From: Hydrogenophaga sp. A37
GTDB taxonomy: Bacteria > Pseudomonadota > Gammaproteobacteria > Burkholderiales > Burkholderiaceae_C
Assembly (NCBI RefSeq): GCF_002001205.1
Contig: NZ_MUNZ01000150.1
Span: forward strand, 1 to 64,000
Length of the DNA: 64,000 nucleotides
Reading direction: 5' to 3'
Positions 15,687 to 26,912 of the stretch are shown here, piece after piece. The notes beneath the pieces were generated by a model that made no database searches, was not told the origin of the DNA, and was given only the letters and a program-made list of their open reading frames with translations. Position 1 is the first letter of the stretch. Each line of letters begins with the position of its first letter. Made by a program: the position numbers and the translations under genes.

Positions 15687-16058
15687 TCAAGCCAGACTCA
15701 TGCGAAACAGCTCGGGCTGGCTCTGCCGGTACACCCGCAACCACAGCAGCGTCGCGGGCACCAGCGACTGGCTGGCGAACCACAGGGCTTCGTCCAGGGT
15801 TTCGCCGGGTGGGCCGGCGAGTTGCACTTGCATCAGCGCCCAACCCCACCAGTCGAGTTCGGGCATGGTGGCGCGCTGCTCGGGTTCGATCTGCGCCACG
15901 CTGGCGGCCAGGGTGGCGAGCTGGCGCTGCACCTCGGCGCGCGTGAGGCGCGAGCGCATCAACTCCTCGCGCGGCAACTGTTCGACCAGGATCAGCACCG
16001 ATTCGCAGGCGCCCTGGATCAGGCCCAACAAGGCGCTGTGCAACATGGGTTGGCTCAT
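15687..16058 (-). CDS. Unknown protein at the end of the nifB operon
   Basis: 123 residues. It starts 6 bases after the amine oxidase gene on the minus strand. The sequence is helical, with a Trp-rich middle (LDWWGWALMQVQLAG) and an N-terminus rich in Leu and Glu. I do not recognise the family. It is the last gene before the 557-bp repeat element, so the operon presumably ends here, though I see no strong hairpin terminator. Confidence 0.55.
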   Translation of the reverse strand: MSQPMLHSALLGLIQGACESVLILVEQLPREELMRSRLTRAEVQRQLATLAASVAQIEPEQRATMPELDWWGWALMQVQLAGPPGETLDEALWFASQSLVPATLLWLRVYRQSQPELFRMSLA

Positions 16059-16064
16059 GATCGT

Positions 16065-17675
16065 TCAGGCGCTGAGCGCCATGGGTTGGGCTTGCAGCAA
16101 CCGGGTGTTGAGCTCGATGGCGAACTCTCGCCAGGCAGCGGCCAGGTCGAGCGTGATGGCGCGCTGGGTCTCGGCGTCGGGTGCCTGGTCTTGCGCGAAG
16201 TTCGACAGCGCACACCAGCCGGCGTTGAAGGCCAGCGCGGCCTGCAGCAAGCCCTTGTTCCAGCCCGCGAACGGTGCCAACAGCTGGGGCGTGAGCGCGT
16301 GTTGGCCTTGCGCCACCGCGGCGTCGGCGGCGTCGAGCGCCGGCAACAGCGCGTCGATCTGCGCCAGGCTCTCGCTGTAGACGCGGTCCACCGTCGCCAG
16401 CAGCGCGCGCTGCGTGAGCAGATCGCGTTGCTGGCTGGAGAGGAGGCGCGTGAGGTGGCGGCGGTACTGGTCGGGTGCGGCGGCGGCGCGCGCGGACACG
16501 CCCTCGGCAAAGGCTTTCAGCGCTGCTTCGCGGTCCTGGGCCACAGGCTCGCGAGTGACGGCGGTGGGCGCCTTCTGGCGCAGCAGCGCGTGGGCGATGC
16601 GGTCGGCCGCTTCGAGCGCGCCTTCCATGTGGCCCGCACCGTGTGCCGCTGTTTCGCTGCCGCCCAGAAACACCCGGCCGCTCCACAGCGGCTGGCGCAG
16701 CAGCGGGTCGGCCAGCGGCGGTTCGGGCGGGGTGGCGCGGTCGGTGTCGCTGCAGGTCCAGGGCTCCAGCGACCAGTCTTGCAGCTGCAGCCGGCCGCTC
16801 TGCGCGGCCTGGCCGTAGAGCTGCGCGAGCTGGCTGTCGATGAGCAGCGGCAGGCCGCGCTGGAAGTGCTCGCGCTGCGCCGGGTTCAGCGCCACAAAGC
16901 CGCCCAGCGCTGCGCCGTTGGCGTCGTCGCAGGCGTCGAACACCTCGCCCAGCACGGCCTGCGGGTGGCGCACGAAGGCGTTGCCCGACTGCCCGGCTTC
17001 GCGCCAGAAGGCGTGGTCAAAAGCGACCAGGACCTTGGCGTGTGTTGCCATCCAGGTGGCGGTGTTTTCCATCGCGTCCCAGACCGTCGCCGGCATGGGT
17101 GGATCGAACAGCATGCGGTCATGCACCAGGCGCGGCGGCAGCGCCAGCACGACCTGGCGCGCACGCAGCGGTGCGCCGGTCTCCAGCATGACTTCGATGT
17201 GGGAACCGCGGTCACGCAGCACGCGCACGGGCTTGCCGAGTTGCAGGCAGCCATCGGGCAGATCGGCGGCCAGCGCGTCCACGAGCCGGGCCGCGCCACC
17301 CTGGATGCGCCGTGCGCCGGCGTGCACACCTCCCTCTTCCTGCCGCCACTCGGGCTGGCGATTCGGGTCGGTGAGCCAGAGCGAGTCGCCCGGATCGTGT
17401 TGGGCCAGCGAGGCCAGACCCAGCTCGTCCAGCAGCGCGCTGATGCGCGGCTCGGTCTCGGGCCAGTACCAGGTGGCGCCCAGGTCGAGCGTCTGGCCGG
17501 TCTGCGCATCGGTGCGGGTCAGCACCCGACCGCCGATGCGCTCGCGCGCTTCGAGCAGGGTCACGCTCAGGCCGCGCGCGACCAGGCTGCGGGTAAGCGC
17601 CAGGCCACACAGGCCCGCACCGACCACCAACACGTCGGCCACGTTCTGGGTAGGAAGTTGCAGCAGATGGGCCAT
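16065..17675 (-). CDS. Flavin-containing monoamine oxidase family FAD protein
   Basis: 536 residues. VLVVGAGLCGLALTRSL near residue 15 is the dinucleotide-binding motif, and LLEARERIGGRVLTR near 40 is the flavin amine oxidase signature. RVFLGGSETAAHGAGHMEGA, near residue 355, is the C-terminal FAD contact. About 180 further residues follow that do not belong to the core and look alpha-helical. The family oxidises amines or acts as a desaturase. Here it follows a 2Fe-2S ferredoxin in the nifB operon, so a redox role connected to nitrogen fixation is likely but undefined. Confidence 0.8.
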   Translation of the reverse strand: MAHLLQLPTQNVADVLVVGAGLCGLALTRSLVARGLSVTLLEARERIGGRVLTRTDAQTGQTLDLGATWYWPETEPRISALLDELGLASLAQHDPGDSLWLTDPNRQPEWRQEEGGVHAGARRIQGGAARLVDALAADLPDGCLQLGKPVRVLRDRGSHIEVMLETGAPLRARQVVLALPPRLVHDRMLFDPPMPATVWDAMENTATWMATHAKVLVAFDHAFWREAGQSGNAFVRHPQAVLGEVFDACDDANGAALGGFVALNPAQREHFQRGLPLLIDSQLAQLYGQAAQSGRLQLQDWSLEPWTCSDTDRATPPEPPLADPLLRQPLWSGRVFLGGSETAAHGAGHMEGALEAADRIAHALLRQKAPTAVTREPVAQDREAALKAFAEGVSARAAAAPDQYRRHLTRLLSSQQRDLLTQRALLATVDRVYSESLAQIDALLPALDAADAAVAQGQHALTPQLLAPFAGWNKGLLQAALAFNAGWCALSNFAQDQAPDAETQRAITLDLAAAWREFAIELNTRLLQAQPMALSA

Positions 17676-17804: not shown

Positions 17805-18101
17805 TTACGTTGTCATCAAGAGCTCGACCGTGATCGGGTCTTCGCCCAGCACCGCCTGGCAAGCCAGGCGCGAGGCCGATCCGATGCCGACCATGCCGTC
17901 GAGCTTTTCGTTCTCCTTCGGCTGGATGCGCGACAGGCTCTTGCGGCCGCTGGTGACGAAGACGTGGCAGGCCTCGCACTTGGCGTCACCGCCGCATTTG
18001 CTCATGACCGGCTCGCCGACGCCGAGCAGGGCTTTGAGGATGGTGGTGCCGGCGGCGACTTCGTAGGATTTGCCGGAAGGAAGGACGGTGATCGTGGTCA
18101 T
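17805..18101 (-). CDS. [2Fe-2S] ferredoxin, nif-associated
   Basis: 98 residues. The plant-type cluster ligands are visible as C-G-G-D-A-K-C-E-A-C near residues 36-45 (CX5CX2C) and a fourth Cys in RLACQAVLG near residue 81. Single-electron carrier, cytoplasmic. It lies in the nifB operon between the SIR2-like gene and the amine oxidase, and may feed or drain electrons from the latter or serve Fe-S/cofactor assembly. An AAGGAAGGA ribosome site precedes it. Confidence 0.9.
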   Translation of the reverse strand: MTTITVLPSGKSYEVAAGTTILKALLGVGEPVMSKCGGDAKCEACHVFVTSGRKSLSRIQPKENEKLDGMVGIGSASRLACQAVLGEDPITVELLMTT

Positions 18102-18149: not shown

Positions 18150-18989
18150 TCAGGCGGCCAGTGCTGGCTGCATCGCGTCAATGAACGCCGCCGAAAAATC
18201 GGCCAGCGGCATGTTGATGCGCCTGATGCCCTGCTCTTGGAGAAAACGCGCTTCCATGCGGGTGGGCTCGTTGGGCAACACGGCCCAGTGCAGGTCGCTG
18301 GAGCGTTTCATGATCTGGCGCGCGAAGCAGCGCGTGAGCTGGTCGTCGAAACGGCAGCCGAGGAACAGGAAGCTGCGGCCGGTGCGCCAGGCCTGCACGG
18401 CGGCGGGGATGGGGGTCTGGATGTCGATCTCGGTCAGCACCTCGACGTAGTCGCTGTCGGACACCAGATAGTTGCCGGCCGGGCTGTGGCCGCCCCAGGG
18501 TTTGTAGTGCGTGGGCGCCACGGGCAGGTCTTCGAGCGCCTGGCCCTGGGCGTCGTAGGCGCCGGTCCACTGGCCGAAATGTTCGGACTGCGACAGGCCC
18601 TGCACCTGGTTCCAGCCATTGCCACCACGCATCCGGGTCAGCGCGTTCAGCATGGTGTCGTCGTACCAGGTGTCGACCCAGAGGCCGGCGTTGCTGCCCG
18701 CCAGGGCCAGCTGCAGGGCCGAAGGCTCGGGCGAGCTGGCAAAGGCTTCGTTCATCAGGTGCACCACCGATTTGCGGTGCTTGAAGTTCTCGATGAACTG
18801 GGCCGCCTGCGTCAGGCGGTGGCGCACCTTGTGCGGCACGCTGACCTTGGCCGTCATGAAGGTCGCCAGGTCCAGCGGCGTGGCCGGCACCTTGCCGGGT
18901 TCACACAGCGACAACATGTCCGGGCCCATGTAAGGGATGACGCTGCCGGCGTCGAGGCGGCTGGCGATGTCTTGGATCAGGTCGGTCAT
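18150..18989 (-). CDS. SIR2-like protein in nif operon
   Basis: 279 residues. The N-terminus GSVIPYMGPDML takes the place of the GAGxS loop of SIR2 NAD-binding proteins, and SFLFLGCRFDDQLTRCFARQ resembles the late Rossmann strand of the SIR2_2 family. The classical deacetylase His and zinc cysteines are not evident, so this is a divergent, possibly NAD-binding protein rather than a deacetylase. It follows the DegT-fold gene by 9 bases and is followed by a ferredoxin. Its place in the nifB operon suggests a role in nitrogenase maturation or control. Confidence 0.65.
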   Translation of the reverse strand: MTDLIQDIASRLDAGSVIPYMGPDMLSLCEPGKVPATPLDLATFMTAKVSVPHKVRHRLTQAAQFIENFKHRKSVVHLMNEAFASSPEPSALQLALAGSNAGLWVDTWYDDTMLNALTRMRGGNGWNQVQGLSQSEHFGQWTGAYDAQGQALEDLPVAPTHYKPWGGHSPAGNYLVSDSDYVEVLTEIDIQTPIPAAVQAWRTGRSFLFLGCRFDDQLTRCFARQIMKRSSDLHWAVLPNEPTRMEARFLQEQGIRRINMPLADFSAAFIDAMQPALAA

Positions 18990-18998
18990 GGGTTTTCC

Positions 18999-20162
18999 TT
19001 AGAGGTAAATGGCGGCGCCGGCACCGACGTTGGTGGCCGTGTCTTTGAGCGTCGTGACGATGTACTGCACCTGGACCGCGTCCATCTGGGTGTGCAGCGG
19101 CAGGGCCAGGGCGCGGTCGCCGATGCGGTCGGTGTCGCGCAGCAGGCCTCGCTGCTGGCCGATGGACTCGGTTGCGTTCATGTAATAGAACTGCTGGTGC
19201 AGCGGGTGGCTGTAGGCGGCGGTCTCGACGCCGCTGGACGCCATGTCGTCCACCATCTGCGCGCGGGCGCTGGCGGTGAAGCGTTTGCCCAGGTGCACCA
19301 CGTAGAGCATCCAGTGCACCTCGTCCACGTTCTCGGCCAGGTAGGGCGGCTTCACGCCCTCGAAGCTCTGCATCTGTTCGTGGTACCAGAGCTCCACCTG
19401 CTTGCGCTCCAGCAGCCGGTCGTCCAGGCTGGCGAGCTGGGCCAGGCCGAGCGCGGCGGTCATCTCGCTCATGCCGGCCTGCAGCGGCACGCGCGAACCG
19501 ACCGAGACCGAGTGCCGGTCGCTCACGCGGCGCTGGCGCAGGTAGCGCAGCTCGTGCACCAGCACGTCGTCGTCGGTGACCAGCATGCCGCCCTCGCCGG
19601 TGCACAGGGCCGAGGGCTGCGAGAAGTCGAACACCGAAACGTCGCCGAAGCTGCCCACGGTCTGGCCCTTGTAGCGCGAGCCCAGGGCTTCGGTGCTGTC
19701 TTCGATCAGGTGGATGCCGTGCGCTTTGGCGAGCGCACGCAATGGGTCCCAGTCGGCTGGGTGGCCGTTGGTGTTGCCGGCCAGGATGGCCCGGGTCTGC
19801 GGCGTGATCTTGAGCGCGGCCTTCTCGGGGCTCAGGCAGCCGGTCCAGTAGTTGATGTCGGCGAACACCGGCGTGGCGCCCGCGAGCGTGATGGCCTGCG
19901 CCACCTGGTGCCAGGCGTGGCTGCTGCAGACCACCTCGTCGCCCGGGCCGATGCCGTAGGCGCGCAACGCGATCCAGGTGCCCAGGGTGCCGCTGCCCAC
20001 CGCGACCGCATGGCGGCGCCCGGCCCAGCCGGCGAAGGCGCGCTCAAACGATTCCAGCATGGGGCCATCGCCCCAGCGGGCCGAATTCAGCACGGCGGTG
20101 ACGAGTTCAATCTCGCGCTCGCCGCACTCGGGCTCGTAGAGGGAGATGGCATCGATTTCCAT
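18999..20162 (-). CDS. DegT/DnrJ/EryC1/StrS aminotransferase-fold protein lacking the PLP lysine
   Basis: 387 residues from ATG 20162; the frame extends to 20243 through a mini-repeat, which I exclude. Fold type I features are clear: GSGTLGTWIALRA near 57, HLIEDSTEALGS near 151 (PLP Asp155), and GEGGML near 189. In active members the Schiff-base Lys stands five residues before GEGG; here the segment is DFSQPSALCTGEGG, with Ser at that place and no Lys nearby. It therefore cannot be a normal transaminase. It is in the nifB operon, before the SIR2-like gene, and not near sugar genes. Confidence 0.85.
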   Translation of the reverse strand: MEIDAISLYEPECGEREIELVTAVLNSARWGDGPMLESFERAFAGWAGRRHAVAVGSGTLGTWIALRAYGIGPGDEVVCSSHAWHQVAQAITLAGATPVFADINYWTGCLSPEKAALKITPQTRAILAGNTNGHPADWDPLRALAKAHGIHLIEDSTEALGSRYKGQTVGSFGDVSVFDFSQPSALCTGEGGMLVTDDDVLVHELRYLRQRRVSDRHSVSVGSRVPLQAGMSEMTAALGLAQLASLDDRLLERKQVELWYHEQMQSFEGVKPPYLAENVDEVHWMLYVVHLGKRFTASARAQMVDDMASSGVETAAYSHPLHQQFYYMNATESIGQQRGLLRDTDRIGDRALALPLHTQMDAVQVQYIVTTLKDTATNVGAGAAIYL

Positions 20163-20268: not shown

Positions 20269-20529
20269 TCACTCCTGGGTGAGGATCAATGCATCGGCTT
20301 CTTCGGGCTGCTCGGTCACGCTCCAGCAATGGCCGTTGGAAGTGGCCAGGTAGACCTTGCGGGCGCCCAGCAGCAATGCCGGTTTTTCGTCGCGCATGTC
20401 CATCGCATCGACCAGCACCACCTTCATGTCGGGGTGCTGGGAACGCCAGATCGAGGCCGCGTCGCGCAGGGTGGCGGCAGCGCCCACGAGTTCGCCGGCC
20501 GCGCGCAGGTGTTCGGTGCTGATGGACAT
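20269..20529 (-). CDS. Small nif-associated protein of unknown function
   Basis: 86 residues. The sequence KVVLVDAMDMRDEKPALLLG and KVYLATSNGHCWSVTEQ suggests a small alpha/beta protein. It follows nifT by 5 bases in the nifB operon. No family recognised with confidence; it is conserved-looking and well placed for a ribosome site (GGACTGAGC upstream). Confidence 0.6.
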   Translation of the reverse strand: MSISTEHLRAAGELVGAAATLRDAASIWRSQHPDMKVVLVDAMDMRDEKPALLLGARKVYLATSNGHCWSVTEQPEEADALILTQE

Positions 20530-20534
20530 GGTGC

Positions 20535-20759
20535 TCAGTCCTCGGAGACCGAAGAGGCCAGGCGGCGCGCTTCGACGGTGATGGGCAGGGTTGTGCCTTC
20601 GGGCATGACCGGCAGTTCAAGCTGCCAGCCGTTGCCCAGCGTGACCAGGCCACCCCACATGCCGGGATTCACCATGTCAACGATGGGCTCCTCCAGGTCT
20701 TTCTTCGGCACATAGGCGCTCAGCACACCTTTGGCATCGCGGCGGATCATCACTTTCAT
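20535..20759 (-). CDS. nifT: NifT/FixU family protein
   Basis: 74 residues from ATG 20759, chosen because GGAG lies six bases upstream; a second ATG at 20762 is directly adjacent. KVMIRRDAKGVLSAYVPKKD, the following EEP, and MWGGLVTLGNGWQLELP match NifT. This small protein is conserved in nif clusters, usually next to nifHDK, and its loss has little effect in tested species. Here it sits behind nifS in the nifB operon instead. Confidence 0.88.
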   Translation of the reverse strand: MKVMIRRDAKGVLSAYVPKKDLEEPIVDMVNPGMWGGLVTLGNGWQLELPVMPEGTTLPITVEARRLASSVSED

Positions 20760-20785
20760 CATCGGCTCCAGTAGGCAAACAAAAT

Positions 20786-21931
20786 TCAAGACGCAGCGGT
20801 TTCGGCGCTGAGCAAGGGTTCGAGCAAGGCGGGCAGGCTGTTCAGCAGCAAGGCAATGTCTTCAGCGCGGGTTTCATCGCCGAGCGAAAAGCGGATGGCG
20901 CACAGCGCCTCGTCGCGCGGCACGCCCATGGCGGTCAACACGTGCGATGGCTCGCTGCCACCCGAGGAACAGGCCGCGCCGCTGCTGGCGGCCACGTTGA
21001 GGCGCGAGAGGCGCTGCAGCACGACGTCGGCGTCCACCTGGCCAAAGCGCAGGTAGCTGGTACCCGGCAGGCGCGGCACACCCTGGCACCACACGTGCAG
21101 GCCCGGCAGTTCGGCCAGGCCGCGTTCGAGCGCGTCGCGCAGGCCGGCCACGCGCTGGGCTGAGTCCTGCAGATCGCCCAGGCGCTGCAGCGCCGCGGCC
21201 AAACCGACGATGGCCGGCAGGTTCTCGGTGCCACCGCGGCGGCCTCGCTCCTGGCTGCCCGGCACCGGCGACACGAAGGCCAAACCCTGGCGCAGCAACA
21301 AGGCGCCCGCGCCCTTGGGGCCGTGGAATTTGTGGGCCGAGAGCGACACCGCGTCGGCCGGGTATTCGGCAAATGAAAACGGCAGCTTGCCGATCCACTG
21401 CGTGGCGTCCACGTGCATCGGTGCGCCGGCCGCGTGGGCCAAGGCGGCAACCTCGGCGACGGGCATGAGCGCACCGGTTTCGTTGTTGGCCGCCATCAGC
21501 GAGACCACGGCCAGGTCCGGGCCCATCAGGGCCGCAGCGGCGGTGAGGTCGATGCGCCCCTCGGGCGCCACAGGCATGAAGTCCACGGGCACGCCCTGCT
21601 CGGCCAGCGAACGCGCCAGGCGCAGCAGCGCCGAGTGTTCGACCGCGCCGATCAGCAGGCGGGCGCGGCCTTGCGCTTTGGCCGCCGCGAGCAGGCCGGT
21701 CAAGGCCATGTGGTTGGCCTCGGTGGCGCCGCTGGTGAAGATGAGTTCACTGGTCTTGCAGCCCAGCGCCTTGGCCGCCGTGGCGCGGGCCGCGCCGAGC
21801 ACCCGCTTGGCGTCCTGCCCCGGGCCGTGCTGCGACGAGGGATTGGCCCAGGCGGTGACAAACACCGGCCCCATCGCATCCAGCACCTCGGGCGCGGGCG
21901 GTGTCGTGGCGTTGTGGTCGAGGTAGATCAT
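20786..21931 (-). CDS. nifS: Cysteine desulfurase, NifS type
   Basis: 381 residues. IYLDHNATTPP at the start, TSGATEANHMAL near 66, SAHKFHGPKG with PLP Lys201 and the active-site Cys321 in SSGAACSSGGSEPSHVL show a class-I cysteine desulfurase. It takes sulfur from cysteine to Fe-S scaffold proteins for nitrogenase. It is more divergent from IscS than the second desulfurase at 30760, consistent with a nif-dedicated copy. Its operon has an A-type carrier but no NifU. Confidence 0.92.
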   Translation of the reverse strand: MIYLDHNATTPPAPEVLDAMGPVFVTAWANPSSQHGPGQDAKRVLGAARATAAKALGCKTSELIFTSGATEANHMALTGLLAAAKAQGRARLLIGAVEHSALLRLARSLAEQGVPVDFMPVAPEGRIDLTAAAALMGPDLAVVSLMAANNETGALMPVAEVAALAHAAGAPMHVDATQWIGKLPFSFAEYPADAVSLSAHKFHGPKGAGALLLRQGLAFVSPVPGSQERGRRGGTENLPAIVGLAAALQRLGDLQDSAQRVAGLRDALERGLAELPGLHVWCQGVPRLPGTSYLRFGQVDADVVLQRLSRLNVAASSGAACSSGGSEPSHVLTAMGVPRDEALCAIRFSLGDETRAEDIALLLNSLPALLEPLLSAETAAS

Positions 21932-22260
21932 GGCCAGAACTGGCGTTCGCTGTCCAAGCAGAGCAAGTCCAGCAAGGGTTCAATCTGGTCGGCCCGCTCT
22001 TTCTCCACCCAGGCTTGCTGTTGGTGGTCGCGTGCGCACAGCGTCCAGCAAGGGTGCTCGCCCACGGGCGGCTTCAGCAAGGCAATGGCTATGGTGCCGC
22101 CGCTCGAGTCCACGTTGCGCGAGCAGCAAGGGCTTTCAACACGGTAGCCCTGCTCGTCGATCAACACGGTGGGTTGCACGAAGCGGTAGCGCACGCGTTC
22201 CTTCAGCGCCCGCTCCAGGCGGTGCAGCGTCAGGTCACGCGGTGCGCGGGCAGCGTTCAT
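21928..22260 (-). CDS. Nif-operon protein of unknown function
   Basis: 110 residues; its start overlaps the end of the NifZ-like gene and its stop overlaps nifS ATG. A CC pair in VESPCCSRNV and further Cys in HPCWTLCARD could bind metal. The C-terminal LLDLLCLDSERQFWP is compact. I do not recognise the family. Tight coupling on both sides shows it is a real gene of the nifB operon. Confidence 0.65.
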   Translation of the reverse strand: MNAARAPRDLTLHRLERALKERVRYRFVQPTVLIDEQGYRVESPCCSRNVDSSGGTIAIALLKPPVGEHPCWTLCARDHQQQAWVEKERADQIEPLLDLLCLDSERQFWP

Positions 22261-22538
22261 GCCAGCTCGTCTTCGGTCTCGGGCAAGAGGCCGGCCGGGG
22301 CGGGCACGAGTTCGATCTCCAGGCAGCCGACCACACAGCCGGGGAACTGCACCAGGTAGACCGGTTCGTTGAGGTCCTGCGCGTGGCCGATGTTGACGAT
22401 CTCACCCACCGTGCCGCGCGCGGCGAGCAGGGCGTCGGGTTCGCGTTCGGGGTGGCTGCCGTCGTTGATCAGGTCGTCCAGCGCGATCACGCGCTGGCCC
22501 CAGGCGTAGGCGGGTTCGCGGGGTTCAATGCCGTTCAT
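22257..22538 (-). CDS. Second NifZ-domain protein
   Basis: 93 residues. YAWGQRVIALDDLINDGSHP followed by TVGEIVNIGHA and EPVYLVQFPG follows the NifZ pattern (basic start, NDG turn, G-E-I-V-N/G-Y-V, then a V-x-F strand). It overlaps the preceding nifZ stop by four bases (ATGA). NifZ helps form the second P-cluster of the MoFe protein; two adjacent NifZ-type genes may divide this job. Confidence 0.75.
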   Translation of the reverse strand: MNGIEPREPAYAWGQRVIALDDLINDGSHPEREPDALLAARGTVGEIVNIGHAQDLNEPVYLVQFPGCVVGCLEIELVPAPAGLLPETEDELA

Positions 22539-22912
22539 GGGGCCTCCGTGGCGGTGGTGGTGTGGGTGGGTGTGGCTTGGCCGAGGGTGGTGATGGAAGC
22601 GGCCTTCTCGCCGAGCTGCGCCAGCACCTCGTCGGGCAGGTTGTCCAGGGTGCAGAGTTCTTTGGCGCGCATGCCGACGCGGTGGCCGGAGTCGACGAAG
22701 TCGACGGCGTAGATGTAGAACTGCTGCAGGAAGGTGTTGATGTTGATGACGTAGCCGATCTCGCCCTTGTTCACCAGCACCTCGCCGATGTCCTTGCCGT
22801 TGTAGGTGCCGTCGTTGCGCACCACGGAGCGCGCGATCACGCGTTCGCCGTACTGGAAGCGCGGAGGGAAAGCGAGTTCGATCTCGGCGTCGTCGCGGTT
22901 GATGTCAGCCAT
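22535..22912 (-). CDS. nifZ: NifZ, P-cluster maturation protein
   Basis: 125 residues from ATG 22912, overlapping the LRV gene stop by eight bases. FPPRFQYGERVIARSVVRND, then GTYNGKDIGEVLVNKGEIGY and FLQQFYIYAVDF, match the NifZ core almost end to end. The last 40 residues are a Thr/Ala-rich tail. NifZ acts as a chaperone in maturation of the second P-cluster pair of dinitrogenase in the cytoplasm. Confidence 0.92.
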   Translation of the reverse strand: MADINRDDAEIELAFPPRFQYGERVIARSVVRNDGTYNGKDIGEVLVNKGEIGYVININTFLQQFYIYAVDFVDSGHRVGMRAKELCTLDNLPDEVLAQLGEKAASITTLGQATPTHTTTATEAP

Positions 22913-23729
22913 GGGGCGCTCCCGGAACCAGTGAAAGGGCCTGGCGCGTGTCCTGGCGTTCGAGCACGCACTGGCGCACCAGGGGGTCGTCGTCCTCGCG
23001 CAAGGGGTCGAGCAGGGACGGGTCGGCGCGCTGCGCCACTTCCCAGCGCACACGCCAGTCGGTGTCGGTCATCAGGCGCGGCAACAGGGGCGCGGGCAGG
23101 CGCTCGGCGACCGTGCGGCGCACCTCGGGCGACTTGTCGCTGAGCAGGATCTGCAGCGCAGGCATCTCCAGGCGCTGCGCCACGATCAGGCGCACGGCGC
23201 GGTCGGGGTCGCGCGCCATGGTCGGCAACAGCGCCAGCGGCAGGCGCCGCGCCACCCATTCGCGAACGCCGTAATCGGTGTCGTTGCGCATGGCGGCCAG
23301 CTCCGCCGTTTCCAGGCGCTGGGCGACGCGGATGCGCACCTCGCGGTGCGGGTCGTGTGCCATGCGGCCGAGCAGTTGCTGCGGCAGGCGCAGGGCGATC
23401 TGCAGGCGCACGGTTTCGTCCGGGTCGTCCATCAGCGAGGCCAGGCGGAACACGTTGGCGTGGCGCGCGGCGATGGCGCGCACCTCGAAGTACGCATGGC
23501 CGAGCTGGCGGTCGCCCTGCTCCGGATGCCAGCGGAAGAAGCGGTCGATGCGGCGCGCGTACACGTCCTGCATGCAGGCGTGTCCCGGTTCGCAGCCCTG
23601 TTCGGCCGGGCGTTCGCGCAAGGCCTGGTATTCGCAGGCGCTGCAGTCCACCGGGCCACCCTGCCAGTGCGAGGCCTCGATGTCACCAGCGGGGGCGCGG
23701 GTGCCGATGAAGTCGCTCAGCGCAGCCAC
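22905..23729 (-). CDS. LRV (leucine-rich repeat variant) iron-sulfur protein
   Basis: 274 residues if started at GTG 23729, which has GGAGG seven bases upstream; a longer frame to 23795 runs through a mini-repeat and is less likely. The N-terminus has a Cys cluster (CSACEY, then GCEPGHACMQDVYARRIDRF) for a 4Fe-4S centre. From about residue 75 to 270 there are repeats of about 24 residues of the type DPDETVRLQIALRLP, DPHREVRIRVAQRL, DTDYGVREWVARRL. This is the architecture of the Azotobacter vinelandii LRV protein. Function is unknown; it is found with nif genes. Confidence 0.85.
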   Translation of the reverse strand: MAALSDFIGTRAPAGDIEASHWQGGPVDCSACEYQALRERPAEQGCEPGHACMQDVYARRIDRFFRWHPEQGDRQLGHAYFEVRAIAARHANVFRLASLMDDPDETVRLQIALRLPQQLLGRMAHDPHREVRIRVAQRLETAELAAMRNDTDYGVREWVARRLPLALLPTMARDPDRAVRLIVAQRLEMPALQILLSDKSPEVRRTVAERLPAPLLPRLMTDTDWRVRWEVAQRADPSLLDPLREDDDPLVRQCVLERQDTRQALSLVPGAPHG

Positions 23730-25189: not shown

Positions 25190-26791
25190 TCAGGCGGCTT
25201 CGGCGATGCCGCCGGTGAAAGCGCCCTGGCGGATCTGCGCGTCGCCGCGCGGCTGGTGCGTGATGGCGCCGCTGGCGATGCGGCTGCGGTAGTCGTTGAA
25301 CCACTCCAGTGCGGCCTTTTCGATGAACTCGCCGACGTACTGGTCCACCGGTTCGACACCGGCGGCCAGCAACTCGTCGCGCGGGCAGGCGCCGATCTTG
25401 GCGACCAGCACGGCGTGGCAGTCGTTGATGGCGTTGACCACCGAAGGCAGCTGCTCGTCGTCGCCGTGGCCACCCTGGCAATACAGGTCGACGCGGCGGT
25501 GGCCGACAAACAGGGCCTGCGCGGCCGAGACTTCAAACACCTGGAATTCGGTGACGTGGCCGAAGTGCTCGTTGACCCGGCCGCCGCCCTTGGTGGCGAC
25601 CGCGACCAGCACCTTCAGGTCGTCGTCCACGCCCACGGCGTTGGCCGCGGCGGCCAGGGCTTGATGTTTGGCGGCCTGTTGCGCCTGGCGCTCGACCTCG
25701 ACCTTGTCCTGGTAGCTCTTGCGCTTGTCCAGGTCGTAGACCACTTCCATCTGCTCCAGCTTGTCGAGCGTGAACTCTTCCGAGCGGTCTTCGCCCAGCA
25801 GGCCCACCGCGTCGGCGCGACACTGGCGGCAGTGGCGCATGAGGTTGGCGCCGCCCATGCAGGCGTCCTGCACGGCCTTCAGCTCAGAGGCGGTCGGGCC
25901 ACGCTGGCCGGTCAGGCCGAACACCGTGCCGTGTTCGGCTTCGGAGATGAGCGGCATGATGTTGTGCAGGAAGGCGCCGCGCTTCTTCACTTCGCGGTTC
26001 ACCTCGATCAGGTGCTCGTCGTTGATGCCGGGGATCAGCACCGAGTTGATCTTGGTGAGCACGCCGCGCGCGGTGAGCATTTCCAGCCCGAGCATCTGGC
26101 GCTCGTGCAGGATCTTCGCGGCCTCGTAGCCGGTCACGCGCTTGTGGTTCCAGAAGATCCAGGGGTAGATCTTTTCGCCCACGGCCGGGTCCACCATGTT
26201 GATGGTGATGGTCACGTGGTCGACGTTGTATTTGCAGATCTCGTCGACCTGATCGGGCAGCGCCAGGCCGTTGGTGGACAGGCAGAGCTTGATGTCGGGC
26301 GCCTGCTCCTGCAGCATGCGGAAGGTGTCGAAGGTCTTGGCCGGGTTGGCCAGCGCATCGCCCGGGCCGGCCACGCCGAGCACCGTCATCTGCGGGATCT
26401 CGCTCGCCACGGCGACCACTTTTTTCACGGCCTGTTCGGGCGTGAGCTTTTGCGACACCACACCCGGGCGCGACTCGTTGCTGCAGTCGTACTTGCGGTT
26501 GCAGTAGTTGCACTGGATGTTGCAGGCCGGCGCCACGGCGACGTGCATGCGCGCGTAGTGGTGGTGCGCCTCTTCGGAGTAGCAGGGGTGGTTCTTGACC
26601 TTGTCCCAGACTTCCTGTGGCATGTCGTCCGGTCCGTCCGACGTGCCGCAGCTGGCTTTGCCTTCACCGCCGGAGGTGCCGCAGCCACCACCGGCGGCGG
26701 GCAGTTCTGGCGTGGCGCCCAAGGATTTGATCTGGCCGATGCCGATGTAGGTCTTGGCCGGCAATGAACCACTGGCTGCGCTGGTTTGCAT
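25190..26791 (-). CDS. nifB: NifB, FeMo-cofactor precursor synthase (radical SAM plus NifX-like domain)
   Basis: 533 residues from ATG 26791, chosen because AGGG lies seven bases upstream and the sigma-54 promoter would leave a 37-base leader; the GTG at 26815 would be only about 13 bases from the transcript start. The radical SAM motif is C90-NIQ-C94-NY-C97. The C-terminal 150 residues ([20 protein letters not shown] onward) are the NifX-like domain that carries NifB-co. NifB converts 4Fe-4S pairs and SAM to the 8Fe-9S-C core. It leads a long operon and is driven by NifA. Confidence 0.97.
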
Positions 26792-26838
26792 GGGAACCCT
26801 TTTCGCGTCCGACACTTGGCCGCATGAGGGGACCTATA

Positions 26839-26853
26839 GCCAAATCCGTGCCA
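26839..26853 (-). promoter_or_regulatory. Sigma-54 promoter of nifB
   Basis: Minus-strand TGGCACGGATTTGGC keeps the invariant GG-N10-GC of RpoN promoters (-24 and -12). It is about 48 bases before nifB ATG and 44 bases after a NifA site, on the correct strand. Confidence 0.85.
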
Positions 26854-26896
26854 CGGAAAAATCGTTCTAAATCAACAGATCCAGAGGTTTTTCGGT

Positions 26897-26912
26897 TGTC
26901 GGATATGGGACA
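26897..26912 (-). promoter_or_regulatory. NifA upstream activator sequence for nifB
   Basis: tgtcggatatgggaca is a perfect TGT-N10-ACA. It lies upstream of the nifB sigma-54 promoter. Confidence 0.85.

What the first reader, a model, noticed from the sequence alone, without database searches (positions are those of the whole stretch)
18999..20162. DegT aminotransferase-fold protein in the nifB operon has Ser where the PLP lysine should be
The segment DFSQPSALCTGEGG aligns with the conserved K-N-x-x-x-GEGG pattern, but the Lys position is Ser184 and no Lys is near. PLP-site Asp155 and the fold are kept. Lys-to-His members of the family are dehydratases; a Ser version is unusual. The gene is not near sugar genes but between nifT and a SIR2-like gene, so it may be a scaffold or a new enzyme in nitrogenase maturation.
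Basis: partly seen in the sequence, partly recalled or inferred. Interest (0 to 1): 0.65.

Follow-up and report, generated by a model that had tools for sequence, protein, structure and literature searches.

The report
Lysine-less aminotransferase-like nitrogenase accessory protein
A gene labelled "sugar aminotransferase" in nitrogen-fixation operons belongs to a widespread protein clade that has lost the lysine and the phosphate-gripping serine its relatives need for vitamin B6 chemistry, so it is probably an undescribed helper protein for building nitrogenase.

Summary
The gene is on the minus strand, 18999-20162, 387 aa. Ser184 sits at the PLP lysine position and Asp155 is kept. It is neither an error nor a one-strain quirk: 118 of 118 family rows lack the lysine (S 94, G 15, L 4, C 2, A 2, Q 1), against K in 31 of 32 ordinary DegT rows from related genomes. 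All 118 also carry Asp at 179, where all 32 ordinary rows have the Ser that hydrogen-bonds the PLP phosphate in a solved relative. The clade is one side of a 100/100 branch, is under purifying selection and has its own C-terminal tail. It lies in the nifB operon; nifD is found in 36 of 37 carrier genomes. It co-travels with a DUF6129-like protein, a NifS-like protein, a [2Fe-2S] ferredoxin and DUF3024. The neighbouring SIR2-like protein has also lost the NADase catalytic Asn. Best reading: a PLP-independent, repurposed DegT-fold protein acting as a binding or scaffold factor in nitrogenase Fe-S/cofactor maturation. The clade, the losses and the linkage are shown; the role is inferred. The paper searches named in the report found no description of it.

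The parts
18999..20162 (-). DegT-fold protein without PLP lysine (387 aa; S184, D179, D155; C-terminal tail NVGAGAAIY)
   Evidence: (PF01041 E 1.4e-88)
20269..20529 (-). 86-aa protein (p86), DUF6129-like by its relatives
   Evidence: No Pfam hit itself. Of three relatives at the same place, L134 hits DUF6129 over cut-off (1.5e-5), L133 below cut-off (0.0028), L132 not at all. Next upstream of DegT in 92 of 105 loci
18150..18989 (-). SIR2-like protein; catalytic Asn replaced by Trp108; catalytic His position not His here
   Evidence: PF13289 8.5e-17; alignment to ThsA; W in 106 of 106 rows; SIR2 fold by Foldseek
17805..18101 (-). [2Fe-2S] ferredoxin, ISC-like
   Evidence: PF00111 4.2e-10; TIGR02007 7.3e-17, below its cut-off; present in 60 of 69 long loci
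20535..20789 (-). nifT
   Evidence: TIGR02934 8.1e-30, over cut-off
20786..21931 (-). NifS-like cysteine desulfurase (PLP Lys motif SAHKFHGPKG and Cys motif ACSSG kept; roles of these motifs recalled)
   Evidence: TIGR03402 362.6 bits, below the 530.75 cut-off; sequence
21928..22260 (-). DUF3024 protein
   Evidence: PF11225 7e-16; 65 of 69 long loci
22257..23053 (-). two NifZ-type proteins (ORFs 22257-22538 and 22535-23053; the second probably starts nearer 22905)
   Evidence: homologous to genes annotated nifZ in L132 and L133
22905..23795 (-). LRV repeat protein with Fe-S motif
   Evidence: PF05484 2.2e-19, PF01816 7.5e-27
25190..26815 (-). nifB, first gene of the operon
   Evidence: TIGR01290 8.8e-203 over cut-off at G000:C114:25301-26617
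26839..26912 (-). possible NifA/sigma-54 promoter before nifB (TGGCACGGATTTGGC at 26839-26853; TGT-N10-ACA at 26897-26912; motifs recalled)
   Evidence: 17 and 11 matches in the window against 11.8 and 9.7 expected, so near chance; position-based inference only

Best explanation
This is a repurposed DegT-fold protein: a nif-dedicated offshoot of the sugar-aminotransferase superfamily that has given up Schiff-base PLP chemistry. The dimeric fold is kept (inferred from homology and the model). The PLP lysine is lost, the phosphate-binding Ser is replaced by an invariant Asp that would repel a phosphate, and the Asn/basic pair on the loop at 228-230 is gone. In their place a new, nearly invariant set appears (N130, N132, H134, W138, D179, H290, tail NVGAGAAIY). 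Those losses, the clade and the nif linkage are shown. Inferred: the remodelled cleft binds a different ligand or partner protein, and the protein works with the DUF6129-like protein and, in most genomes, the NifS-like desulfurase, the ISC-like ferredoxin and the SIR2-like protein, as an assembly or carrier factor for Fe-S/cofactor maturation around NifB.
For: Lys absent in 118 of 118 family rows against K in 31 of 32 ordinary rows; D179 in 118 of 118 against Ser in 32 of 32; D155 in all of both. Spr1654 paper: Ser at Lys-5 hydrogen-bonds the phosphate, Asp at Lys-29 contacts N1. Clade 100/100 with 37 against 32 rows. dN/dS 0.14-0.44 in six pairs. nifD in 36 of 37 carriers. 24 of 27 carriers have NifB over cut-off against 20 of 273 non-carriers. 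Synteny: p86 next upstream in 92 of 105 loci. Co-travelling set, each member in 60-65 of 69 long loci and in 0 of 5 comparable DegT-negative nifB-nifT-SIR2 loci. DegT fold in the model.
Against: Lys-to-Ala mutants of relatives still crystallise with PLP (3nys, 4oca; titles), so loss of Lys alone does not exclude cofactor binding, and W84, D155 and T59 of the PLP site are mostly kept. Active-site geometry could not be measured; the model has pLDDT 73. Two carrier genomes (G128, G200) show no NifB by search, and one (G135) no nifD. Nothing tests binding, partners or phenotype; operon context alone points to maturation.
Confidence: 0.57

Rival explanations
1. A new enzyme: the remodelled cleft catalyses PLP-independent chemistry (for example on a sulfur or iron intermediate), with the neighbouring [2Fe-2S] ferredoxin as electron donor.
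For: Polar residues in and near the cleft are nearly invariant rather than eroded (N130, D155, D179, H134 in 117-118 of 118), which suggests an active or binding site. A ferredoxin is in 60 of 69 long loci and next downstream in 22 of 105.
Against: No catalytic residue set, substrate or cofactor is identified. The ferredoxin was not detected in 9 of 69 long loci. No Cys among the 71 most conserved positions.
Confidence: 0.2
2. A sensor or regulator of nitrogenase: DegT-like and SIR2-like proteins, both lacking catalytic residues, form a ligand-sensing complex that tunes nitrogenase activity.
For: 27 of 27 carriers in the order sample have a close SIR2-like gene against 8 of 20 NifB-positive non-carriers. 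A SIR2 family protein next to NifT is NifA-dependent in Rhodobacter capsulatus.
Against: P. ribeironis and P. atlantica keep a full-length DegT but have no SIR2 match in the genome at E 0.001. In three of four loci from outside the window's class (L129, L131, L134; not L130) the two genes are apart.
Confidence: 0.13
3. A non-covalent PMP/PLP enzyme, as in the Lys-to-His dehydratases ColD and DdhC (recalled).
For: Asp155, the aromatic residue at 84 and T59 of the PLP site are kept in most rows; Lys mutants of relatives hold PLP in crystals (titles).
Against: Invariant Asp in place of the phosphate Ser; no His at the Lys position (0 of 118); loss of the Asn/basic residues at 228-230; no conserved Cys for a DdhC-type cluster.
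Confidence: 0.08
4. A degenerate passenger gene or a sequence error.
For: One relative, in Bradyrhizobium sp. BWA-3-5, is split between two reading frames.
Against: 118 different family rows of at least 330 aa, 71 positions identical in at least 116 of them, dN/dS well below 1, closest genomes agree.
Confidence: 0.02

Closest known systems
GDP-perosamine synthase (3bn1, 3dr4) and ArnB (1mdo), DegT/DnrJ/EryC1/StrS aminotransferases
   Same: Same family profile and fold (3bn1_D: VIA Z 38.1, rmsd 3.0 over 348 residues, 32% identity; Foldseek top hit 3dr4_A); Asp155, aromatic 84, T59 kept
   Different: No Schiff-base Lys; Ser of the phosphate site is Asp; loop 228-230 changed; extra conserved C-terminal tail; sits in a nif operon
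ColD / DdhC (E1), DegT-family Lys-to-His dehydratases
   Same: Lys lost from a DegT-fold protein
   Different: They put His there and bind PMP (recalled); this clade has S/G/L/C/A/Q, and no conserved cysteines of the DdhC kind were found
SPTLC1 subunit of serine palmitoyltransferase (recalled)
   Same: Fold-type I PLP-family protein that lost its Lys and acts as a non-catalytic partner
   Different: Different subfamily; no catalytic DegT partner gene is next to this one
Nif accessory proteins of unclear role (NifT, NifZ, NifW, nif-linked SIR2-like proteins)
   Same: Same operon or nif cluster; conserved with Mo-nitrogenase
   Different: None of them has the DegT fold (recalled for NifT, NifZ, NifW; SIR2 fold)

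Membership tests
DegT/DnrJ/EryC1/StrS superfamily by descent (PF01041) | Profile match over the whole protein and type I fold | tested here: met
   E 1.4e-88, residues 13-372; Foldseek and VIA hits
DegT-type PLP aminotransferase | Schiff-base lysine | tested here: not met
   0 of 118 family rows; 31 of 32 ordinary rows have it
DegT-type PLP aminotransferase | Phosphate-binding Ser five residues before the Lys | tested here: not met
   Asp in 118 of 118; Ser in 32 of 32 ordinary rows; role of the Ser, its conservation
DegT-type PLP aminotransferase | Asp contacting the pyridine nitrogen | tested here: met
   D155 in 118 of 118
DegT-type PLP aminotransferase | Transaminase activity on a nucleotide sugar | not testable with these tools
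   -
Lys-to-His dehydratases (ColD type) | His at the Lys position | tested here: not met
   0 of 118
DdhC (E1) [2Fe-2S] dehydrase | Conserved cluster cysteines (recalled) | tested here: not met
   No Cys among the 71 positions conserved in at least 116 of 118 rows
nif-regulon accessory protein | Located in nif operons and present with nitrogenase | tested here: met
   nifD in 36 of 37 carriers; NifB match in 68 of 69 long loci
nif-regulon accessory protein | NifA-dependent expression and a phenotype on N2 | not testable with these tools
   Only a SIR2 family protein beside NifT has NifA dependence in a paper I saw, in R. capsulatus
SIR2 NADase (neighbour gene) | Catalytic Asn and His | tested here: not met
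   Window: Trp at both positions. Relatives beside DegT: Asn position is W in 106 of 106 rows; L129, L131 and L134 keep the His

The most novel reading that the evidence does not exclude
A previously undescribed nitrogenase assembly factor: a DegT-fold dimer that lost PLP and now uses the old cofactor pocket to bind a cofactor-assembly intermediate or partner (with its DUF6129-like neighbour). It is hidden under the label 'sugar aminotransferase' in many diazotrophic Pseudomonadota, and sits beside a SIR2-fold protein that has likewise lost catalytic residues.
Probability: 0.4. Interest if true: 0.8.

Novelty: new variant of a known kind. Interest (0 to 1): 0.62.

Why it matters
If true, a gene that automatic annotation calls a DegT-family aminotransferase is really a conserved nif accessory gene in many beta- and gammaproteobacteria and at least some alphaproteobacteria. 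Several carriers are workable laboratory diazotrophs (for example Paraburkholderia xenovorans LB400, P. unamae, P. tropica, Derxia gummosa; carriers, their use as laboratory diazotrophs recalled). It would add a missing part to attempts to move nitrogenase into new hosts, and it gives a rare case where a whole PLP-enzyme clade can be followed from enzyme to apparent non-enzyme. Deletion and cofactor-binding tests are simple.

Tried and rejected
Sequencing error, single-strain oddity and pseudogene: rejected. Another Lys taking over: no Lys at 178-191 in 118 rows; of the window's own lysines only K271 (118 of 118) and K373 (116 of 118) are kept in at least 116 rows, and I could not measure their distance to the pocket. 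Lys-to-His dehydratase: rejected (0 His in 118). DdhC-type enzyme: no conserved Cys. Obligate DegT-SIR2 pair: weakened by P. ribeironis and P. atlantica, which keep DegT without SIR2. The split into 'close' and 'distant' SIR2 was made after seeing the E-values, so the Fisher p of 2.4e-6 is post hoc. The Fisher test of carriers against NifB ignores relatedness. The tree flags long branches, among them the ordinary row L002, which joins the family side at 82/8; it does not break the family branch.

Sigma-54/NifA motif scans gave counts near chance and are used only by position. Paper searches that found no description of the gene; searches for family structures or Lys-less aminotransferases. In one search (20 of 1,980 listed) the three listed papers that hold 'DegT' are on other topics by title and abstract start and were not opened. 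Passages searched in five further papers gave nothing on this gene: PMC9309667, PMC3916325, PMC12727197, PMC7341956, PMC11227200. The DegT structure used 19 sequences, the window and 18 of the 27 other family loci then in hand, and has low confidence in the C-terminal third.

Rows dropped: L095 and L134 were too short for the 118-row set; thirteen loci (L001, L004, L012, L026, L027, L112, L113, L116-L121) were left out of it as copies of the window or of other loci. In one search, of 109 SIR2 matches the two window copies and rows of 220 aa or less were dropped, leaving 105 and the window row.

Full report
WHAT IS THERE. It matches the DegT/DnrJ/EryC1/StrS family over its whole length (PF01041, E 1.4e-88), but no NCBIfam aminotransferase model reaches its cut-off. 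It is part of a run of close or overlapping genes downstream of nifB: nifB, fdxN, an IscA-like gene, a TPR protein, an LRV/Fe-S protein, two nifZ-like genes, DUF3024, a NifS-like gene, nifT, an 86-aa protein (p86), this gene, a SIR2-like gene, a [2Fe-2S] ferredoxin and a flavoprotein (fdxN-, IscA- and nifZ-like by homology to annotated genes in L132 and L133). So p86, not nifT, is directly upstream.

THE ACTIVE SITE. HMMER alignments to 3dr4, 3bn1, 4oca and 1mdo (3dr4 and 3bn1 again) place S184 on the Schiff-base lysine. In Spr1654, a solved relative, the passages I read give Lys199 as the Schiff base, Asp170 on the pyridine nitrogen, His173 near O3', Tyr84 on the ring, Ser194 and Thr59 on the phosphate, and Glu205/Gly206 by water (PMC5936713, passages). 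The spacing from Lys is the same in the window protein, so Ser194 equals D179, Asp170 equals D155, His173 equals E158 and Glu205 equals E190. In Pcryo_0638 the ligand-site residues strictly conserved among three enzymes are Thr60, Asp156, Ser180, Lys185 and Asn239 (PMC8040287, passages).

The ordinary rows are the 30 loci fetched from 20 NifB-positive genomes that lack the family, plus two from the window's own genome; one search listed more matches than were fetched. Results: position 184 is S 94, G 15, L 4, C 2, A 2, Q 1, against K 31, H 1 (the H row, L163, is a weak partial match). Position 179 is D 118, against S 32. Position 155 is D in all of both. Position 190 is E in only 96 of 118. 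Positions 228-230 are mostly Q-A-[G/A/S], against N-x-R or K-x-N type. New residues nearly fixed in the family: N130 (118), N132 (114), H134 (117), W138 (118), H290 (118), H357 (116). A C-terminal tail, NVGAGAAIY in 96 of 118 and close variants in nearly all others, is absent at positions 384-386 in 29 of 32 ordinary rows. No Lys occurs at 178-191 in any of the 118 rows. So the lysine loss is one of several coordinated changes. An Asp in the phosphate site speaks against normal PLP binding. It is not proof: K-to-A mutants of relatives crystallise with PLP (3nys, 4oca; titles), and W84, T59 and D155 mostly remain.

FOLD. The AlphaFold model from 19 sequences has mean pLDDT 73.3 and pTM 0.75, weak in the last third. 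It matches GDP-perosamine synthase best (Foldseek 3dr4_A, E 1.4e-28; VIA 3bn1_D, Z 38.1, rmsd 3.0 over 348; the next rows are tied within Z 1). No coordinates were available to me, so I could not measure whether K271 or K373 comes near the pocket.

A CLADE, NOT A QUIRK. On a tree of 37 family and 32 ordinary rows the family is one side of a branch with 100/100 support. The outgroup is limited to paralogues from the same order, and the tree flags long branches, so a closer Lys-bearing sister elsewhere may exist. Six pairwise dN/dS values are 0.14 to 0.44. In the same pairs nifB has 0.07 to 0.25 and the SIR2-like gene 0.13 to 0.49; the NifS-like gene (five pairs) has 0.16 to 0.47.

LINK TO NITROGEN FIXATION. 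In 300 genomes of the order, 27, the window's included, hold the gene (E up to 1e-60; 28 places, all at least 413 bits). NifB over its cut-off is in 44 of the same 300. 24 of the 27 carriers are among them, against 20 of 273 non-carriers (Fisher p 2e-20, relatedness ignored). The three other carriers are G122 (a NifB fragment), G128 and G200 (no NifB by two searches, though nifD is present; one search had no positive control of its own). Wider samples add 7 carriers among 369 genomes of the class sample and 3 new ones among 398 of the phylum sample. Of all 37 carriers, 36 have a nifD match, 35 over the cut-off; G030 has a fragment and G135 none. The 20 NifB-positive non-carriers have only ordinary DegT matches (best E 6.7e-49). 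A pattern scan of species genomes found 465 candidate relatives and kept the best 80, among them Hydrogenophaga, Rhodoferax, Polaromonas, Curvibacter, Cupriavidus, Derxia and many Paraburkholderia. Plasmid hits: two Paraburkholderia, one Methylococcus, one Bradyrhizobium.

SYNTENY. Of 120 loci, 105 have at least 1.4 kb on both sides. Among the genes I looked for, the next upstream is p86 in 92, nifT in 11, SIR2 in 1 and none in 1; the next downstream is SIR2 in 80, the ferredoxin in 22 and none in 3. In 69 loci with long flanks: nifT 69, nifB 68, SIR2 67, DUF3024 65, p86 64, NifS-like 60, ferredoxin 60. In five DegT-negative loci with a comparable nifB-nifT-SIR2 run (L135-L139, 10-13 kb each), DUF3024, p86, NifS-like and ferredoxin were not detected while nifT and SIR2 were; I did not look for them elsewhere in those genomes. 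So DegT travels with an accessory set (DUF3024, NifS-like, p86, ferredoxin). Of four loci from outside the window's class, three (L129, L131 and Bradyrhizobium L134) have nifT-SIR2 apart from the DegT gene, while L130 has them together. In P. ribeironis and P. atlantica the SIR2, NifS-like, DUF3024 and ferredoxin genes are not detected at the locus, and SIR2 nowhere in the genome, but p86 and a 387-aa DegT remain. p86 and DegT therefore look like the tightest pair.

THE SIR2-LIKE NEIGHBOUR. A profile of 56 rows aligns weakly (best E 3.8e-6) to ThsA and KomC-type NADases, with the catalytic Asn at position 108 and the catalytic His at 165 (that these residues are catalytic is recalled). Position 108 is Trp in 106 of 106 rows beside DegT; one close relative in a DegT-negative genome has Gly (L138). 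Position 165 is I, L or W in 81 of the 89 loci whose segment was tallied (aligned to 10 letters); L129, L131 and L134 keep His. A more distant SIR2 group in four DegT-negative loci keeps an Asn but not the His (L140-L143). The model (pLDDT 92.3) has a SIR2 fold. Of 47 genomes (44 NifB-positive plus G122, G128, G200), 46 have a SIR2 match at E 1e-20: close in 27 of 27 DegT carriers; in the 20 non-carriers close in 8, distant in 11, none in 1 (the close/distant split was made afterwards). In R. capsulatus a SIR2 family protein beside NifT was not found in a nifA mutant (PMC6925177, passages). A SIR2-domain gene is listed in the Zymomonas mobilis nif cluster (PMC8594446, passages), and nifT-SIR2 is drawn in a Rhodovulum operon (PMC9412634, one figure legend). 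The word DegT does not occur in these three main texts.

MECHANISM. Shown: descent from PLP sugar aminotransferases, loss of PLP-anchoring residues in the whole clade sampled, replacement by a new nearly invariant set, presence with nifD in 36 of 37 carriers, and location in the nifB operon. Inferred: it does not do Schiff-base chemistry (about 0.93). It is a binding or scaffold factor for Fe-S/cofactor maturation (about 0.57), rather than a new PLP-independent enzyme (0.2), a sensor with the SIR2-like protein (0.13) or a non-covalent PMP enzyme (0.08). The NifS-like protein and ISC-like ferredoxin in the co-travelling set point to sulfur or electron supply for cluster assembly, but this is context only.

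NOVELTY. Full-text searches with DegT plus nifB/nifT, nitrogenase/SIR2, nif cluster, and nifH/nifD/diazotroph terms and with SIR2 plus nif terms listed no paper on this gene, as far as listings and the passages opened show. The library holds only open-licence papers, so a description elsewhere is possible. I rate it a new variant of a known kind: a nif-dedicated, Lys-less branch of the DegT fold.

Noticed in passing
window 18150-18989 (-): The SIR2-like neighbour has Trp for the NADase Asn (106 of 106 rows) and lacks the His here. Its stretch DIQTPIP (189-195) is nearly invariant although the overlapping segment 186-190 is the least confident part of the model, suggesting a partner or ligand interface.
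   Followed up: partly
G128 (L123) and G200 (L122): Two related genomes carry nifD, nifT, the DegT-like gene and other nif genes, but two searches found no NifB.
   Followed up: partly
L093, L094, L077, L132 (Paraburkholderia ribeironis, P. atlantica, P. tuberum, P. sprentiae): The NifS-like and SIR2-like genes of this operon are not detected or only in fragments while the DegT-like gene is full length, 387 aa.
   Followed up: partly
L134:11655-13065 (Bradyrhizobium sp. BWA-3-5 plasmid): The DegT-like gene is unannotated and split between two reading frames, either decaying or a sequence error; the nearby SIR2-like gene is annotated as a full CDS.
   Followed up: yes
L140-L143: A second, distant nif-region SIR2-like group keeps an Asn (motif INRD/ANRD/VNRD) but not the His, in genomes without the DegT-like gene.
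   Followed up: partly
window 20786-21931 (-): The NifS-like gene scores 362.6 bits, well below the NifS cut-off of 530.75, yet keeps the Lys and Cys motifs; it may be a distinct desulfurase subfamily that travels with the DegT-like gene.
   Followed up: no
window 16065-17675 (-) and 15687-16058 (-): A flavin amine-oxidase-like protein and a 123-aa protein without family hits follow the ferredoxin; found in 35 and 29 of 69 long loci.
   Followed up: no
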